This document shows, piece after piece, positions 25,751 through 59,132 of a stretch of 64,000 nt of DNA. Below the pieces are notes generated by a model. It had not been told where the DNA came from and searched no databases. It worked only from the letters and a program-made list of their open reading frames with translations. Location of the stretch: the IMG/VR virus record IMGVR_UViG_3300031673_000014, positions 17,146 to 81,145 of that record; one strand, written 5' to 3'. The translations under genes were made by a program, and so were the position numbers. The number at the start of each line of letters is the position of its first letter. The first letter of the stretch is position 1. The DNA comes from a virus.

Positions 25751-26374
25751 TTATTTATTCTCTTTAATATATTTCTTCCTGAAATTATCTATGTTCTGCA
25801 TTGTCATAACTGCTTGAGGGTAGTTTCTACTCTCGGAGACGTTTGTTCTAAGAGTCAATAATCCAAGATTTAAAGATTTTTGAGAGGGTATATTTTTCCC
25901 GGTCAACAACCCATTATCTCTCATAATGTCAAATATTTCTGTTTGGCTTAACCCTAAATGTTTGCCAGCATCACGAATAGAATAATGTTTTGATTCATCT
26001 CTCAGGGCAGCATCAGCAAGTGCAGCTTTTGGTTTTAGAATTGCATTTTCTTCCTCTAGTTTCTTATACCTCTGAATAGCGAGCTCATAACCTTTTACGA
26101 TCATCAAAGCTTCTTCTGCCTGTGTTGTTGGCAACTTCCTACGATCATCGGAAGTGATTAAAGAACTATTTTCCTTAATTCTCATTGAAACTGCCGTTAC
26201 TTCATATTCGTTCAAATAAGTAATCTTACCATTCTTAACTTTATCAGGAAAAATCTCATTAACCCTTTTTATTACAAGGGCATAACTTACTCCTAATGAA
26301 TCTGCAACTTCTTTTATGGTCATTGTTTTTTCTGGAAAATCTTCTTGTGGAAATAATGCAAGATCTCTGTTCAT
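25751..26374 (-). CDS. KilAC-domain antirepressor with N-terminal helix-turn-helix
   Basis: 207 residues from the ATG after AAGGAGTTTTTT. N-terminal 'MTIKEVADSLGVSYALVIKRV' is a helix-turn-helix; a coiled region ('YKKLEEENAILKPKAALADAAL') leads to a KilAC domain ('YSIRDAGKHLGLSQTEIFDIMRDNGLL'). The ribosome site is buried in a perfect 18-bp hairpin and a 20-codon leader frame precedes it. A longer form from GTG at 26407 is possible through coupling to the leader. Confidence 0.75.
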   Translation of the reverse strand: MNRDLALFPQEDFPEKTMTIKEVADSLGVSYALVIKRVNEIFPDKVKNGKITYLNEYEVTAVSMRIKENSSLITSDDRRKLPTTQAEEALMIVKGYELAIQRYKKLEEENAILKPKAALADAALRDESKHYSIRDAGKHLGLSQTEIFDIMRDNGLLTGKNIPSQKSLNLGLLTLRTNVSESRNYPQAVMTMQNIDNFRKKYIKENK

Positions 26375-26379
26375 AAAAA

Positions 26380-26455
26380 ACTCCTTAAGTCTTCCTGTAG
26401 CGACCACTAAAAAGCTAGTTCGGAAAACTTTATAGGGCAGGAAGACTTAAGGAGT
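26380..26455 (-). promoter_or_regulatory. RBS-sequestering leader hairpin of the antirepressor
   Basis: Positions 26380-26397 and 26438-26455 are perfect 18-bp inverted repeats around a 40-nt loop. In the minus-strand mRNA the downstream arm contains the AAGGAG of the antirepressor, so the site is fully paired. A smaller inner stem (CTAaAAAG/CTTTaTAG) extends the structure. Confidence 0.85.
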
Positions 26456-41077: not shown

Positions 41078-41174
41078 GACTGGTAATAGTTTTCAGAGGA
41101 ATAATACAATATGGCCGTTGTTCGTGGTTTGTATCATTCGTTCTAACTCGGGAAACTATTGCTGGTCTTTTTTT
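41078..41174 (+). ncRNA. 90-nt hairpin RNA or attenuator ahead of antirepressor
   Basis: GACTGGTAATAGTTT (41078-41092) pairs with AAACTATTGCTGGTC (41153-41167) over 15 bp with three wobbles, followed by seven T. Inside, GAATAATACAA (41099-41109) pairs with TTGTATCATTC (41129-41139) with one mismatch. No frame spans it. It is terminator-like and its T tract ends 14 nt before the antirepressor start codon. Confidence 0.65.
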
Positions 41175-41188
41175 ATTTGGAGGATTTT

Positions 41189-41887
41189 ATGAACGATTTA
41201 ATTAAGATTGAAAACAAGAACGGAATTGAGACCGTCAACGCAAGAGAACTTCACGAGTTTTTAGAGAGTAAACAGGATTTTTCTACATGGGTAAAAGGTA
41301 GAATTAAAAAGTATGATTTTTCTGCAAACATCGATTTTATTTGCTTCCATAAAAAAATGGAAGCCAACAATGCAACCATAATAGACTATCATATCTCACT
41401 TGATATGGCTAAAGAACTCTCCATGGTTGAAAATAACGAAAAGGGAAGAGAAGCCAGAAGATACTTTATTGAGTGTGAGAAAAAGGCTAAAGGCTTTGTT
41501 ACTCAAAATATAAACAGTTCTGATGTAATTATACAACTGCTACAGCAAAACCAGATAATCATGAAATCACTTATTGAAAGAGTTGATAAGGTAGAGAGTA
41601 ATTCTTTTATTGTTTCTTCCGGGAAAAAGCAAAAATATAAACTTCCCCCGGCGAAACAAATGGAATTCCAGAGTATTGGAGAAGATTATTACACAATAGC
41701 AGCTTACCAGAAGATCAGGAAAATTTCTCTTTACGATACGTCTTCACATGGGAAAATTCTTACTGGAATATGCAATCGGGAAGGAATACAGATAAGTTCT
41801 GTTAAAAGCACTACTTTCGGGATAGTAAATTCTTATCCTGAATCAGTTCTTAAGAAATATTTTGATTCTATGGTGGTCGGGAAGTAA
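41189..41887 (+). CDS. AntA/AntB-type antirepressor
   Basis: 232 residues from the ATG after TTTGGAGGATTTT. 'NARELHEFLESKQDFSTWVKGRIKKYDF' and 'YHISLDMAKELSMVENNEKGREARRYFIECEKK' are the AntA/AntB domain. The C-terminal part is variable. Antirepressors of this kind bind and inactivate the phage repressor. Expression is probably controlled by the hairpin upstream. Confidence 0.85.
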   Translation: MNDLIKIENKNGIETVNARELHEFLESKQDFSTWVKGRIKKYDFSANIDFICFHKKMEANNATIIDYHISLDMAKELSMVENNEKGREARRYFIECEKKAKGFVTQNINSSDVIIQLLQQNQIIMKSLIERVDKVESNSFIVSSGKKQKYKLPPAKQMEFQSIGEDYYTIAAYQKIRKISLYDTSSHGKILTGICNREGIQISSVKSTTFGIVNSYPESVLKKYFDSMVVGK

Positions 41888-41964
41888 TGAAATATGTTTT
41901 ATTTGCTTTAATAATTGTTCTTATTCTGGTTGTGTTCTGGTTAGTTTCGGGAGATGGTAAATGA
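41887..41964 (+). CDS. Tiny membrane peptide (25 aa)
   Basis: TAATG overlap with the antirepressor and ATGA overlap with the next gene. 'YVLFALIIVLILVVFWLV' is a single membrane helix. Short, but the junctions support translation. Confidence 0.5.
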   Translation: MKYVLFALIIVLILVVFWLVSGDGK

Positions 41965-42212
41965 CTGTAGAAGATTTAATTGAACAGCTCAAGGTTTCAC
42001 TTGAAATGGGAGTTATTGATAAAAACGATATTGTTTCTATAACTACAAATACTGGAAAAGGCTGGAATACGGAATTTGTTAGATCAATAACAGCTCCGAC
42101 TATGAGATATCCAGCTCCTAAAGAACAGAGAGCAATACATCAAATATCTTTTGTAAAGTTTATAGAAATAGAAGACGAGAAAAACCAGATAAAAATGAAT
42201 TTTTTAATTTGA
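41961..42212 (+). CDS. Hypothetical protein (83 aa)
   Basis: Begins 'MTVEDLIEQLKVSLEMGVI'. Resembles small phage proteins that follow regulators; no known function. Its end overlaps the -35 of the next promoter. Confidence 0.5.
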   Translation: MTVEDLIEQLKVSLEMGVIDKNDIVSITTNTGKGWNTEFVRSITAPTMRYPAPKEQRAIHQISFVKFIEIEDEKNQIKMNFLI

Positions 42213-42237
42213 TTAATAACAGAATAAGAGTTATTAT
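42209..42237 (+). promoter_or_regulatory. Promoter of the large RNA
   Basis: TTGATT (42209-42214), 17-nt spacer, TATTAT (42232-42237). Predicted start near 42245. No gene begins for the next 830 nt. Confidence 0.65.
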
Positions 42238-42842
42238 TTTAATATCGGGGGATATGAGAAAATTCCCCTTTAAATCTTTTCCGTATGGAGAAGAAAATTA
42301 TACCTAATTAAAAGTATCTAAAAATTAGGTCCCGATTTTATAGCAATGTAGTAGTAGTGGTAGGATCGAAAAGGAGGGAACTACCTGTAGGTTAAAGTAT
42401 CGATGAAAAGATTCTGCCGTGGAACTGTCAAAGGTTTTCGGCGGTAAATTAACGTAGATGGTTAAGGCTATCCGTTTATGTTATACTGAAATAAATGCAA
42501 TTCGATTTTACAGGTCTTATTGTGTTTTAACGATCTTGCCCGTATGGGCTGATCTAAACAAGGGATAGTAACTGGTCCCGAAAACAATTGATTATATTTT
42601 CCCTCACACGAGGGGTTCTTCGGGGACGGTCAAGGGTCCCCGGAGATAAATACTTGTGTTAATGTTGATAGTGTTGCAAGTGCTAATGTTGATCAAGTAG
42701 AGACTGAAATCAGGCAGTCTTTAAAGAAATCTGTGATACCACGGGAGGTAAAAGATAAATCCCTATACCAGCGGAAAAGCTGTGATTTCCTAAAAGTCCA
42801 GGTTGTTTGAGATATTTCAACTGTAAAAGAAATACTCGTCAA

Positions 42843-42915
42843 TGGGAGCTGGTGAAATATGGGATCACGGCAATACAAGTTATGGCAATATGCGGTTCAA
42901 GTCCGTGGCTTCCAA
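42843..42915 (+). tRNA. tRNA-shaped element inside the large RNA
   Basis: All four arms can be drawn with standard spacing: acceptor TGGGAGC/GCTTCCA, D arm GTGA/TCAC with a GG-containing loop, anticodon arm, 4-nt variable loop and T arm TGCGG-TTCAAGT-CCGTG. The anticodon loop ACAAGTT has C instead of U33 and the anticodon stem has one A-G mismatch, so charging (formal anticodon AAG) is doubtful. No CCA is encoded. Confidence 0.5.
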
Positions 42916-43013
42916 TTGCCTCGCATGAGGTAAAACATAAAAGAAATATTAAGAAGTGTTTTGAATTAGAACAAACAGGTTTCTGACGGTTTCTTATTAT
43001 GTAATTCTCCTTA

Positions 43014-43054
43014 GCCGGATCGATGAAGAGGCACTTCGGTGATCCGGCGTTTTT
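43014..43054 (+). terminator. Intrinsic terminator ending the large RNA
   Basis: GCCGGATC (43014-43021) pairs with GATCCGGC (43041-43048), with an inner GAAG/CTTC stem, then GTTTTT. Confidence 0.9.
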
Positions 43055-43075: not shown

Positions 43076-43570
43076 ATGGAATGTGAAAAATGTAACTATA
43101 TGGACAAAACCTGTACCATAGAGAGTCTTTATGGCATAGATCAATTAAAGTCATGCCCTTTCTTGAATGAGCCAGTGCTGAACGAATACGGTTGGCTTAT
43201 GAATCCGCCATTTACAGAGAAGTACCAATTATCTTCAGGTCATGTTTTTCTTATCCCGGAAAAGATAGATTCTAAATGGATTGTTCATTGGAGTTTATTT
43301 AAAGATGGGGCTGGAAGCTGCGGAAGATCAGAAATAGATTTATTTATCCTGGCATATAAAAAAGCAATAAAAGATTTATTGTCAACTTATAGGTTGACAG
43401 ATATTGACCGGGAAGAAATACAATATATATCTGATAATAAATTTGATAACAGAAGATCGTTTCTTCCGAGAGAAAACAAAATAGAAGAAATCCCCGAAAA
43501 AATTGAATACATAAGCCCGTTTTCGGATATGGAATTTGGGGAAATAGGAGATCAACTAGAATTGTTTTAA
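43076..43570 (+). CDS. Hypothetical protein with N-terminal Cys cluster (164 aa)
   Basis: Ribosome site GGGGGATCT. 'MECEKCNYMDKTC' and a later 'SCPF' give four cysteines that could bind zinc. The C-terminus is acidic. First gene after the large RNA. Confidence 0.55.
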   Translation: MECEKCNYMDKTCTIESLYGIDQLKSCPFLNEPVLNEYGWLMNPPFTEKYQLSSGHVFLIPEKIDSKWIVHWSLFKDGAGSCGRSEIDLFILAYKKAIKDLLSTYRLTDIDREEIQYISDNKFDNRRSFLPRENKIEEIPEKIEYISPFSDMEFGEIGDQLELF

Positions 43571-44782: not shown

Positions 44783-44818
44783 AAAACCCCGTCCGGTTAA
44801 CAACACGAACGAGGTTTT
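44783..44818 (+). terminator. Terminator, usable on both strands
   Basis: AAAACC-CGT (44783-44792) pairs with ACG-GGTTTT (44809-44818) with one mismatch. It has A runs before and T runs after, so it can act in both directions. The minus strand beyond it has GGGGGAATT-ATG-AAA-TAG at about 44848-44866, an RBS followed by an immediate stop, probably a gene remnant. Confidence 0.65.
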
Positions 44819-45028
44819 AATCTTAAGAGTTATCCAACGTTTGTCTATTTCATAATTCCCCCTATAAGATATTTTTTAAACCGATTACTAATCTACCGGA
44901 TAACATCCGATTTATGTATAAAGTTAATCCCTTTAAATTGAGCTGTCAAGAACAAAAAATAAAAATAACCATTGATTAATACATGAAACGAGTATAAACT
45001 ATGTACAAAAGACAAAAAGGGGTAAGAA

Positions 45029-45175
45029 GTGAATGTAAAGACAGAATGCTATGGAGAAGTTGAAAAACTACTCATAGCACACCAGAAGAAGTATTTCTCG
45101 CATATAAAATCTACAGGGGCGTACTTGGTTGAAATGGCAAGGCAAAGAGCCGAAAAAGACATGAAGGGAGAATAG
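45029..45175 (+). CDS. Small hypothetical protein (48 aa)
   Basis: GTG after AAGGGGTAAGAA. Helical, 'YGEVEKLLIAHQKKYFSHIK'. Upstream at 44972 TTGATT with TATAAA at 44993 may be its promoter. Confidence 0.55.
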   Translation: MNVKTECYGEVEKLLIAHQKKYFSHIKSTGAYLVEMARQRAEKDMKGE

Positions 45176-45177
45176 AA

Positions 45178-48144: not shown

Positions 48145-48260
48145 TTGTTTGCTGTTTAAAATGCCGGACAGATAGAAAGAAGAAAGTGAGGATGATATTG
48201 AAAAGAAATCATGTATTTTGTCCGGTATGCAAAAGGGCGGTCAAGAGGAGAGTGTTATGA
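48141..48260 (+). CDS. Tiny zinc-ribbon protein (39 aa)
   Basis: 'MIVCCLKCRTDRKKK' and 'FCPVCKRAVKRR' form two CxxC pairs in a very basic peptide. ATGA overlaps on both sides. Confidence 0.6.
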   Translation: MIVCCLKCRTDRKKKVRMILKRNHVFCPVCKRAVKRRVL

Positions 48261-48373
48261 ATTACAATAGAAAACTAAAAAAATCACAAAGACGGTACGC
48301 ATTACAAGAATTGCGTAGGATAGCCAAGATTAGAGATGAGCTTAAAAAAACATCCAACCCGGGGAGGAAATGA
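48257..48373 (+). CDS. Tiny basic protein (38 aa)
   Basis: ATG after AGAGGAGAGTGTT. Arg/Lys-rich ('YNRKLKKSQRRYALQELRR'). Unknown, could bind nucleic acid. Confidence 0.5.
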   Translation: MNYNRKLKKSQRRYALQELRRIAKIRDELKKTSNPGRK

Positions 48374-48377
48374 AATA

Positions 48378-48497
48378 ATGACATATTTTTTTCTAGTTCT
48401 AATATTGGCCCAATTAGTGGCAATTGGAGTCTTTCTAATTGTAATTATTAACAAATTAGACCAGATTATTCACAGGAGAAATCAAAATGAAAGATGA
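48378..48497 (+). CDS. Small membrane protein (39 aa)
   Basis: 'YFFLVLILAQLVAIGVFLIV' is a membrane helix; short basic tail. RBS GGGAGGAAATGAAATA. Overlaps the next gene by 11 bp. Confidence 0.55.
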   Translation: MTYFFLVLILAQLVAIGVFLIVIINKLDQIIHRRNQNER

Positions 48498-54959: not shown

Positions 54960-54988
54960 TTGACATAAAGAATAGATTCGGTTATATT
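54960..54988 (+). promoter_or_regulatory. Sigma-70 promoter of rha
   Basis: TTGACA (54960-54965), 17 nt, TATATT (54983-54988). The spacer has TAGATTCGGTTATA, a possible degenerate copy of the spacer operator. Confidence 0.7.
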
Positions 54989-55008
54989 TATCTGAAAGGT
55001 GGGTAAAT

Positions 55009-55701
55009 ATGAAAAATATAGTTATTTTAAATGGGAACTCTGTTTACACGACAACTCTTATAATAGCTGAGGGTGTTGGTAATGATCACAGGAATGTAAT
55101 GAGGTTGCTTAAAAGGTATTCAAGTACAAAGATTCTTTCGACCTTTGAAACCGCAAAAGTATCAAATGGTGGTAGACCTGTAGAATATGCTATTCTAAAT
55201 GAAACACAAGCTACATTTTTAGTCACTCTTATGAACAACTCTGAAATAGTGGTGTTGTTTAAGGAAGCTCTTACAAATGCGTTTGTGAGGCAAAGAGAGA
55301 TTATTTCAGGGCTTATTCAACAAAGAAAAGATCCAGACTGGCAAAATATAAGAAAGGATGGAAAGACCGTATACATTCAAAAGACGGATATAATAAAAAG
55401 ATTTGTAGACTATGCTACAAGTCAAGGAAGTAAGTCAGCTAAAATGTATTATATGAATTTTGCAAAAATGGAGAATTCTGCATTATTTTTCTTTGAACAA
55501 AAATATAATAACCTCCGAGAGATAATGACGATCAAACAATTAATGCAAGTAGCTACTGCCGATAGCGTAATTGAAAAGGCTATCCAAGATGGTATGGAAT
55601 CTGAAATGTATTACAAGGATATATATAAACAGGCAAAAGAGAGAATTATATCGTTTGCAGAGATTATAGGAAGATCGCCAATATTGGCACTGGGGGAATA
55701 G
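55009..55701 (+). CDS. rha: Rha-family phage regulatory protein
   Basis: 230 residues. 'TTTLIIAEGVGNDHRNVMRLLKRY' followed by 'GGRPVEYAILNETQATFLVTLMNNSE' is the Rha domain. Rha proteins are phage regulators that interfere with growth in some hosts. RBS AAGGTGGG. The C-terminal ~130 residues are helical. Confidence 0.85.
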   Translation: MKNIVILNGNSVYTTTLIIAEGVGNDHRNVMRLLKRYSSTKILSTFETAKVSNGGRPVEYAILNETQATFLVTLMNNSEIVVLFKEALTNAFVRQREIISGLIQQRKDPDWQNIRKDGKTVYIQKTDIIKRFVDYATSQGSKSAKMYYMNFAKMENSALFFFEQKYNNLREIMTIKQLMQVATADSVIEKAIQDGMESEMYYKDIYKQAKERIISFAEIIGRSPILALGE

Positions 55702-57530: not shown

Positions 57531-59132
57531 ATGTGGACAGGTGAACAAAAAGTTGTCGTAGCAACGGCAGCACTAACGACAATGAATCCAGAGTTTAAAC
57601 TCGACTTCTGGCAGGACTGGTATTTAAAGTCCAATGAAAGATTTTTAGTTGTCAATAAGAGCCGTCGTATTGGATGGTCTTATATTACTTCTTTGAAGAG
57701 TGTAGTCGAAGCAAATTCCCCGGATGTCTATAAATATCAGAATGTTTTCGTTTCGTATGGTATGAACGATGCCATAGGAAAAATATCCGATGCCAGAAAT
57801 GCGTTAATGAATCTTCCGGACCGGTGGAGAAAAGAAATATCTTCTGATTCTAAAACATCACTTGAATTTTGGGATAAAGACAGAAAAAGTAAATCTCAGC
57901 TTATATCACTCCCTAATCGTACACTGAGGGGTTTTGGTACTTCTAATCCTTTCGGGGGAATCAGTCTCGATGAATTCGCTTTTCATCAAGATGATAAGAA
58001 AGTTTACGAATCAGCTTTACCGTGTCTCACAAGGGGCGGTTTGCTGTCAATTGGATCAACTCCTTTAGCAAAGGCCGGAATGTTTTATGATATCCTTTCT
58101 GACAAAGATAAATATGCGAGGTATCAAAGATTAAATATTCCCTGGTGGTGGGCTTCTGCTCTGTGTATCGATGTAAATACAGCTCTTAAAATAGCGCCTG
58201 ACTTAACCACGTGGGAACGGGTTGATCAATTCGGAACTGATATTTTAAAAGAAATATTCTCTTCTATGGGATTATCATCTTTTAAACAGGAATTTGAATG
58301 TGAATTCACCGATGAGTCCGAAGCTTTCATAACACTCGAAATGATTAAGTCCTGTACTCCTCAGCAAGTAGAACAGTATGAATATCAAAATATTGCTGAA
58401 TTACTCAATGGTGTAGATATTCCTGAAATATGTACCGGGTTTGATCCAGACGGACAACCGATATTTGAATCGGTAACAGCTCCGGCCTATGATCCTGAGA
58501 TCCATGGTGTGTTATTTGCCGGGTGGGATATGGGAAGGACTAAAGACGCTTCTGTATTTACATTAATCGGATATAAAGACGGGAAATTTCATGTCTGGAT
58601 GTCATACGAATTAAAAAATACTCCATTTGATGAACAGAAAGAATTTGCTTCTCTGGCATTGTCTTCACTTCCAATACAACAATTTTTAATAGATAAGAAC
58701 GGTCTCGGTATGGACTTTGCGGAATGGGCTGAAAAGAAATTTCCGACTATTGCTCATGGTGTCCAGTTTACCAACGAAACTAAAGAAGTTATGGCCAATA
58801 AAGTTTACCTGGGATGTGAGCGAAGAGAATATGTTTTCCCGATGAACAAAAAACTTCATGCAGATATCCATTGTATAAGAAAGACTCTTACTGCAATGAA
58901 ATTCAATAAGTATGATGGAAGTACCAAAGACTCTCATGCAGACCGTTTCTGGAGCTTGGCGCTTGCTACAATGGGAATTACGACAGAGAATAGTAATATA
59001 TCTCAATTTTATTCTCAGTATAGGAAAAATAAGGGTGAAACTAAAAAGAGTGTTAGAATATCGACAGGGAATCCCGAATTAGATAGAATCAAAAGAATGG
59101 TAAGAAGGGGTAATAGGCATGGTAGACGGTAA
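57531..59132 (+). CDS. terL: Terminase large subunit
   Basis: 533 residues. ATPase motifs: Walker A-like 'NKSRRIGWS' (42-50), Walker B 'ISLDEFA' (144-150), 'SIGSTP' coupling motif. Nuclease domain: Asp333 in 'AGWDMGRTKDAS' and Asp residues in 'DSHADRFWSLALA' near the end. It packages phage DNA through the portal. No clear Shine-Dalgarno; a TATAAT lies 9 nt before the ATG. Confidence 0.9.
   Translation: MWTGEQKVVVATAALTTMNPEFKLDFWQDWYLKSNERFLVVNKSRRIGWSYITSLKSVVEANSPDVYKYQNVFVSYGMNDAIGKISDARNALMNLPDRWRKEISSDSKTSLEFWDKDRKSKSQLISLPNRTLRGFGTSNPFGGISLDEFAFHQDDKKVYESALPCLTRGGLLSIGSTPLAKAGMFYDILSDKDKYARYQRLNIPWWWASALCIDVNTALKIAPDLTTWERVDQFGTDILKEIFSSMGLSSFKQEFECEFTDESEAFITLEMIKSCTPQQVEQYEYQNIAELLNGVDIPEICTGFDPDGQPIFESVTAPAYDPEIHGVLFAGWDMGRTKDASVFTLIGYKDGKFHVWMSYELKNTPFDEQKEFASLALSSLPIQQFLIDKNGLGMDFAEWAEKKFPTIAHGVQFTNETKEVMANKVYLGCERREYVFPMNKKLHADIHCIRKTLTAMKFNKYDGSTKDSHADRFWSLALATMGITTENSNISQFYSQYRKNKGETKKSVRISTGNPELDRIKRMVRRGNRHGRR

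What the first reader, a model, noticed from the sequence alone, without database searches (positions are those of the whole stretch)
42245..43054. An ~810-nt promoter-to-terminator region with dense RNA structure and no convincing gene
Seen: TTGATT-17-TATTAT at 42209-42237, then 810 nt without a gene, ending in an 8-bp GCCGGATC hairpin with T run. The region has many strong local stems, the best a perfect 10-bp helix at 42618-42645. The largest open frame is a start-less 72-codon frame in the middle. Known: GOLLD and ROOL are large structured RNAs of about 600-900 nt found in phages; some GOLLD RNAs contain or neighbour a tRNA. Inference: a member or relative of such a class, beside an antirepressor gene.
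Basis: partly seen in the sequence, partly recalled or inferred. Interest (0 to 1): 0.92.

Follow-up and report, generated by a model that had tools for sequence, protein, structure and literature searches.

The report
Phage structured RNA with tRNA mimic
A virus of bacteria carries an ~810-letter stretch that makes no protein but very probably makes a large folded RNA ending in a defective look-alike of a transfer RNA; two other viruses carry the same unusual parts, and it matches no known RNA family.

Summary
42240-43054 lies between genes, has no convincing ORF, folds far better than shuffled sequence (z about -6 to -7), is GC-richer than its flanks and ends in a terminator-like hairpin. 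Two other phage contigs (G003, G008) share, in the same order, two conserved hairpins, M1 (AACUGUCAAAGGUU) and M2 (UUUCAACUGUAAAAGAAA), with M2 followed at once by a tRNA-like element that is abnormal in its anticodon arm each time. The M1 stem shows compensatory changes. In related phage G003 the syntenic site holds a shorter (~236 nt) noncoding element with a homologous terminator, while G003's M1/M2 module lies 33 kb away. GOLLD and ROOL covariance models find nothing at E<=10 in the three phages (ROOL positive control succeeds); no Rfam family matches except tRNA in the relatives. So: a rare, modular, tRNA-linked large phage RNA, similar in layout to GOLLD/ROOL but not a detectable member. 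The mechanism (scaffold or decoy built around a tRNA mimic) is inferred. Only three members were found and none has expression data.

The parts
42209..42237 (+). Putative sigma-70-type promoter TTGATT-17-TATTAT
   Evidence: not above chance on its own. Placed just before the structured region, overlapping the end of an 83-aa ORF (41961-42212).
42240..43054 (+). Whole candidate noncoding RNA
   Evidence: No coding signal; MFE z -6.3 and -7.4; single copy in the 81-kb record.
42414..42444 (+). M1 hairpin, loop and closing pairs AACUGUCAAAGGUU
   Evidence: Same 14-nt core in G003 and G008; 11 of 12 aligned stem pairs form in the window (33 of 36 cells over the three phages), 4 pairs with two-sided changes; sliding controls fall to 28-50% paired.
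42506..42513 (+). UUUUACAG, complementary to the M2 loop CUGUAAAA (possible pseudoknot)
   Evidence: G003 has UUUACGGU, G008 only a weak UUUAUGG. Suggestive only.
42533..42555 (+). Hairpin with GCCC-GUAU-GGGC
   Evidence: Similar TTGCCCGTATAGGCT follows the tRNA-like element in G008; may be chance.
42617..42646 (+).
   Evidence: Minimum-energy fold; no counterpart recognised in relatives.
42795..42842 (+). M2 conserved block; hairpin 42809-42837 with loop AACUGUAAAA
   Evidence: 91% identical over 54 nt to G003; aligned with G008 with a 1-nt deletion inside the block.
42843..42915 (+). tRNA-like cloverleaf (ARAGORN: Leu, AAG) with A.G mismatch and C33 in the anticodon arm
   Evidence: 0 hits in 100 shuffled windows; isolated MFE is a cloverleaf of -17.5 kcal/mol; tRNA-like elements at the same place after M2 in G003 and G008. 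Not recognised by the Rfam tRNA model.
42916..42933 (+). 7-bp hairpin directly after the tRNA-like element
   Evidence: UUGCCUC-GCAU-GAGGUAA; hairpins also follow the tRNA-like elements in the relatives.
43014..43054 (+). Terminator-like hairpin and T run
   Evidence: alignment across it and into the next gene: 69% over 90 nt with the G003 syntenic site.

Best explanation
42240-43054 encodes a large structured noncoding phage RNA with a modular plan: a variable multi-hairpin 5' domain with the M1 hairpin, the conserved M2 hairpin, then a tRNA-like domain with an abnormal anticodon arm, a short hairpin and a terminator. Shown: the folding excess, the shared M1-M2-tRNA order in three phages, compensatory changes in the M1 stem, a syntenic noncoding element with a homologous terminator in phage G003, and no match to GOLLD, ROOL or another Rfam family. 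Inferred mechanism: the tRNA-like domain is a non-decoding mimic recognised by host or phage tRNA-binding proteins (RNase P and Z, a synthetase, EF-Tu or a tRNA-attacking defence nuclease), and the upstream structure is a scaffold held next to it, so that the RNA either sequesters such a protein or is matured by tRNA enzymes into a stable scaffold.
For: Fold z-scores; ARAGORN cloverleaf with 0 false hits in 6.4 Mb of shuffled sequence; M2 91% over 54 nt in G003, and M1 and M2 in the same order in G003 and G008; M1 compensatory changes; tRNA-like elements after M2 abnormal each time: 36-nt insert in G003, class-II Leu-like with a 6-nt anticodon loop in G008, mismatch and C33 in the window; syntenic noncoding element with homologous terminator in G003; the model with all comparative helices is only 3.8 kcal/mol above the free minimum of -250.5.
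Against: Only three members, so covariation is limited to one hairpin of 12 pairs; M2's stem shows only one-sided changes. The Rfam tRNA model does not recognise the window's tRNA-like element. G003's M1/M2 module is much shorter and folds only moderately (z -2.8), G008's not significantly (z -1.2). No transcript data. The free minimum pairs the tRNA-like 5' half with about 42760-42773 instead of forming the cloverleaf. Nothing here tests any binding partner.
Confidence: 0.55

Rival explanations
1. A degenerating phage tRNA locus: the tRNA-like elements are pseudogenes of former tRNA genes, and the rest is structured spacer or leader sequence without a function of its own.
For: tRNA-like elements differ in type between phages and all look damaged; G003 also has an ordinary array of five tRNAs; G008 carries an intact tRNA-Gln between M1 and M2.
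Against: M1 and M2 are more conserved than anything around them, with compensatory changes in M1; z of -6 to -7 over 815 nt is not expected of decaying spacer.
Confidence: 0.2
2. A very divergent GOLLD or ROOL RNA that the covariance models cannot recognise.
For: Same size range, phage origin, tRNA link, and variable region able to hold a real tRNA, as in GOLLD (PMC12286853; G008).
Against: No match at E<=10 in three phages; positive control works for ROOL. The GOLLD model was not checked on a known GOLLD here.
Confidence: 0.1
3. A long 5' leader of the downstream gene (43076-43570): a tRNA-sensing attenuator whose hairpin at 43014-43054 is read through when regulated.
For: The terminator ends 21 nt before the start codon, and gene and terminator are syntenic in G003; the tRNA-like 5' half has an alternative upstream partner, so two folds are nearly isoenergetic.
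Against: No T-box or other riboswitch match in Rfam; the interior is not conserved between the two syntenic sites; no antiterminator partner of the terminator stem was identified.
Confidence: 0.1
4. The conserved pieces act as DNA (protein-binding or recombination sites) or as short coding sequence.
For: M2 is an imperfect palindrome; an FNCKRN peptide frame runs through M2 in all three phages.
Against: The M1 stem keeps pairing while its letters change; a 1-nt deletion inside M2 in G008 breaks any shared frame across the block; no ORF matches a family.
Confidence: 0.05

Closest known systems
GOLLD RNA (RF02032)
   Same: Large (>800 nt) phage/prophage RNA of unknown function, near tRNAs, sometimes with tRNAs in its linker region (PMC12286853).
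   Different: No covariance-model match at E<=10 in the three phages; here a degenerate tRNA mimic follows a conserved hairpin at a fixed place.
ROOL RNA (RF03087)
   Same: Phage/prophage RNA of similar size, often near tRNA islands (PMC12286853).
   Different: No match at E<=10 although the model finds a known ROOL at 130 bits; the held locus of that ROOL lacks the M1/M2 core.
Phage tRNA genes
   Same: Cloverleaf with canonical T-loop UUCAAGU; Leu-type call by ARAGORN.
   Different: Anticodon arms abnormal; window copy not recognised by the Rfam tRNA model; preceded by a conserved M2 hairpin.
tmRNA
   Same: tRNA-like domain joined to a larger structured RNA.
   Different: ARAGORN reports no tmRNA in the window, no Rfam tmRNA match, and the tRNA-like element is contiguous, not formed by the two ends of the RNA.

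Membership tests
GOLLD | Match to the GOLLD covariance model | tested here: not met
   No match at E<=10 in G000, G003, G008; no positive-control record could be loaded.
GOLLD | Phage/prophage encoded, long, linked to tRNA | tested here: met
   Virus record, ~815 nt, tRNA-like at 42843-42915.
GOLLD | Homo-oligomeric RNA nanocage | not testable with these tools
   Needs cryo-EM or native gels.
ROOL | Match to the ROOL covariance model | tested here: not met
   No match at E<=10; positive control passes.
tRNA | Cloverleaf with standard arms | tested here: met
   ARAGORN; isolated MFE is a cloverleaf.
tRNA | Match to the Rfam tRNA model | tested here: not met
   No hit in the window's record; the G003 element and two other tRNAs of the G008 locus do hit.
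tRNA | Decoding-competent anticodon arm (7-nt loop, U33, paired stem) | tested here: not met
   Window: C33 and A.G mismatch; G003: 36-nt insert; G008: abnormal short loop.
T-box / riboswitch leader | Match to a known leader family | tested here: not met
   No Rfam match.
Any Rfam 15 family | Match at gathering threshold | tested here: not met
   0 matches in 64 kb.

The most novel reading that the evidence does not exclude
A previously undescribed class of large phage RNA, unrelated to GOLLD and ROOL, whose integral 3' domain is a tRNA mimic and which carries two copies of an ACUGUNAAAG hairpin motif; the module sits at different sites in related phage genomes and may tether or sequester tRNA-handling proteins.
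Probability: 0.4. Interest if true: 0.8.

Novelty: new variant of a known kind. Interest (0 to 1): 0.6.

Why it matters
GOLLD and ROOL are large phage RNAs of unknown function found near tRNAs. An apparently unrelated RNA of the same style, in which a defective tRNA is part of the conserved architecture, would suggest that the tRNA link is functional and not a neighbourhood accident, and would give a small, testable system (one hairpin plus one tRNA mimic).

Tried and rejected
Homology of the region in 50,697 phage and 72,556 plasmid records: only chance or tRNA-derived hits. A Sporomusa plasmid hit to M2 (H112) is a different array of repeats without a tRNA. Eight viral scans: only G003 and G008 carry M1+M2; the other pattern hits lack a tRNA and look coding. 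Two bacterial-genome scans: no M2; one M1-like match in Pedobacter without M2 beside it. Fragments of phages related by terminase or capsid gene do not hold the motif. Alanine identity (G3-U70) was considered for the window's element and dropped: in the ARAGORN cloverleaf numbering the wobble is G4-U69. The 10-bp repeat ATCGGGGGAT at both ends was considered as an insertion footprint and dropped: GGGGGA before a start codon is common in this phage and looks like its ribosome-binding site, and similar ends occur at the G003 site. Group I intron and tmRNA: no Rfam or ARAGORN support.

Full report
What the window is. The window is bases 17146-81145 of an 81,145-base virus record. Its genes (capsid, tail sheath, portal, terminase, DnaD-like loader, AntA-type antirepressor) describe a contractile-tailed phage with few relatives. 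The region in question lies between an 83-aa ORF (41961-42212) and a 164-aa ORF (43076-43570).

Is it real? Yes. No ORF above 61 aa lies wholly inside, and none of the three largest overlapping ones matches a PHROG. The predicted fold is far more stable than that of dinucleotide shuffles (z -6.3 with 0 of 20 reaching it; z -7.4 with 0 of 40). In 200-nt windows, six of nine across the region have z <= -2.8, while about 2.5% of 157 background windows fall below -3. GC is 0.39 against 0.33-0.34 in the flanks. The promoter match is no better than chance. The terminator is better supported, because its sequence and position are shared with phage G003.

ARAGORN finds one tRNA-like gene in the window, at 42843-42915. 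In 100 shuffled copies of the window it finds none. Folded alone, the piece is a cloverleaf. But the anticodon stem has an A.G mismatch, position 33 is C, and the Rfam tRNA model does not recognise it. It looks like a mimic or a degenerate tRNA, not a decoding tRNA.

Relatives. A terminase search led to phage contig G003 (87.8 kb; most shared proteins 45-85% identical to the window's). G003 holds a block 91% identical over 54 nt to 42795-42848. A pattern search with its core found one further true member, contig G008, which shares few genes with the other two. In all three, hairpin M1 (AACUGUCAAAGGUU) comes first and hairpin M2 (UUUCAACUGUAAAAGAAA) follows, 380, 152 and 389 nt later. A tRNA-like element starts within a few bases of the end of M2's flank. 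In G003 it has a 36-nt insert in the anticodon arm. In G008 it is class-II Leu-like with an abnormal short anticodon loop (ARAGORN gives a two-letter anticodon), and an intact tRNA-Gln lies between M1 and M2.

Structure evidence. The M1 stem has 33 of 36 cells paired and four pairs with changes on both sides; sliding the partner by 1-3 columns drops pairing to 28-50%. M2's stem is kept by one-sided changes, and a 1-nt deletion within M2 in G008 breaks any shared reading frame across the block. Forcing M1, M2, the cloverleaf and the following hairpin into the full fold costs only 3.8 kcal/mol of 250.5. An alternative pairing between the 5' half of the tRNA-like element and about 42760-42773 is almost as good, so two states are possible.

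The syntenic site. In G003 the homologue of the downstream gene (58% aa) lies 33 kb from the M1/M2 module. Directly upstream of it is another noncoding element of about 236 nt (L115 4371-4606). It ends in a hairpin and T run homologous to the window's terminator (69% over 90 nt, running into the gene) and is preceded by a similar small membrane-peptide gene. Its 5' part begins GGGGATATGGCAGAATGG, which resembles the start of tRNA-Leu genes (recalled, not tested), and its predicted fold is cloverleaf-like, only weakly significant (z -1.9, 7 of 200). I read this as one noncoding-RNA locus with a conserved 3' end and a variable, modular interior; in the window's phage it includes the M1/M2 module, in G003 that module is elsewhere. 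This reading is inference.

Relation to known RNAs. The GOLLD and ROOL models give no match at E<=10 in the three phages. The ROOL model recovers a known ROOL from L. salivarius pMP118 at 130 bits; a known GOLLD record could not be loaded as a control. No Rfam family reaches threshold in the window. The likeness to GOLLD (size, phage origin, tRNAs in or near the RNA; PMC12286853) is therefore a likeness in layout, not membership.

Mechanism. The most economical reading is an RNA in which a non-decoding tRNA mimic is held next to a structured scaffold. It could capture tRNA-binding factors or be cut by tRNA-processing enzymes to give a stable scaffold. None of this was tested. The main rivals are a decaying tRNA locus and a regulatory leader of the downstream gene.

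Limits. Three members are too few for a statistical covariation test beyond M1. No collection with expression data was available. The host is unknown.

Noticed in passing
L039 2025-2157 (minus strand), contig G008: A tRNA (48 bits) with a 63-nt insert in the anticodon loop, about 350 nt upstream of M1; too short for an ordinary group I intron.
   Followed up: partly
G003:61661-62081: Array of five ordinary tRNAs just upstream of the terminase gene in the related phage, whereas the window's record has no Rfam-level tRNA at all.
   Followed up: no
L115 4371-4606: Syntenic ~236-nt noncoding element in G003 with tRNA-Leu-like start, cloverleaf-like fold and homologous terminator.
   Followed up: partly
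window 57601-57800: Strongest 200-nt folding signal of the sampled background (z -5.9), inside the terminase large-subunit gene.
   Followed up: no
window, many places: GGGGGA(A) shortly before start codons is very common in this phage and looks like its usual ribosome-binding site, which may help to identify the host.
   Followed up: no
window 44783-45177 and 48145-48486: Two other gaps of 340-400 nt without an ORF of 60 aa or more.
   Followed up: no
window 41159-41887, 25751-26407, 54982-55701: Three antirepressor or Rha-like regulators in one phage, suggesting a temperate life style.
   Followed up: no
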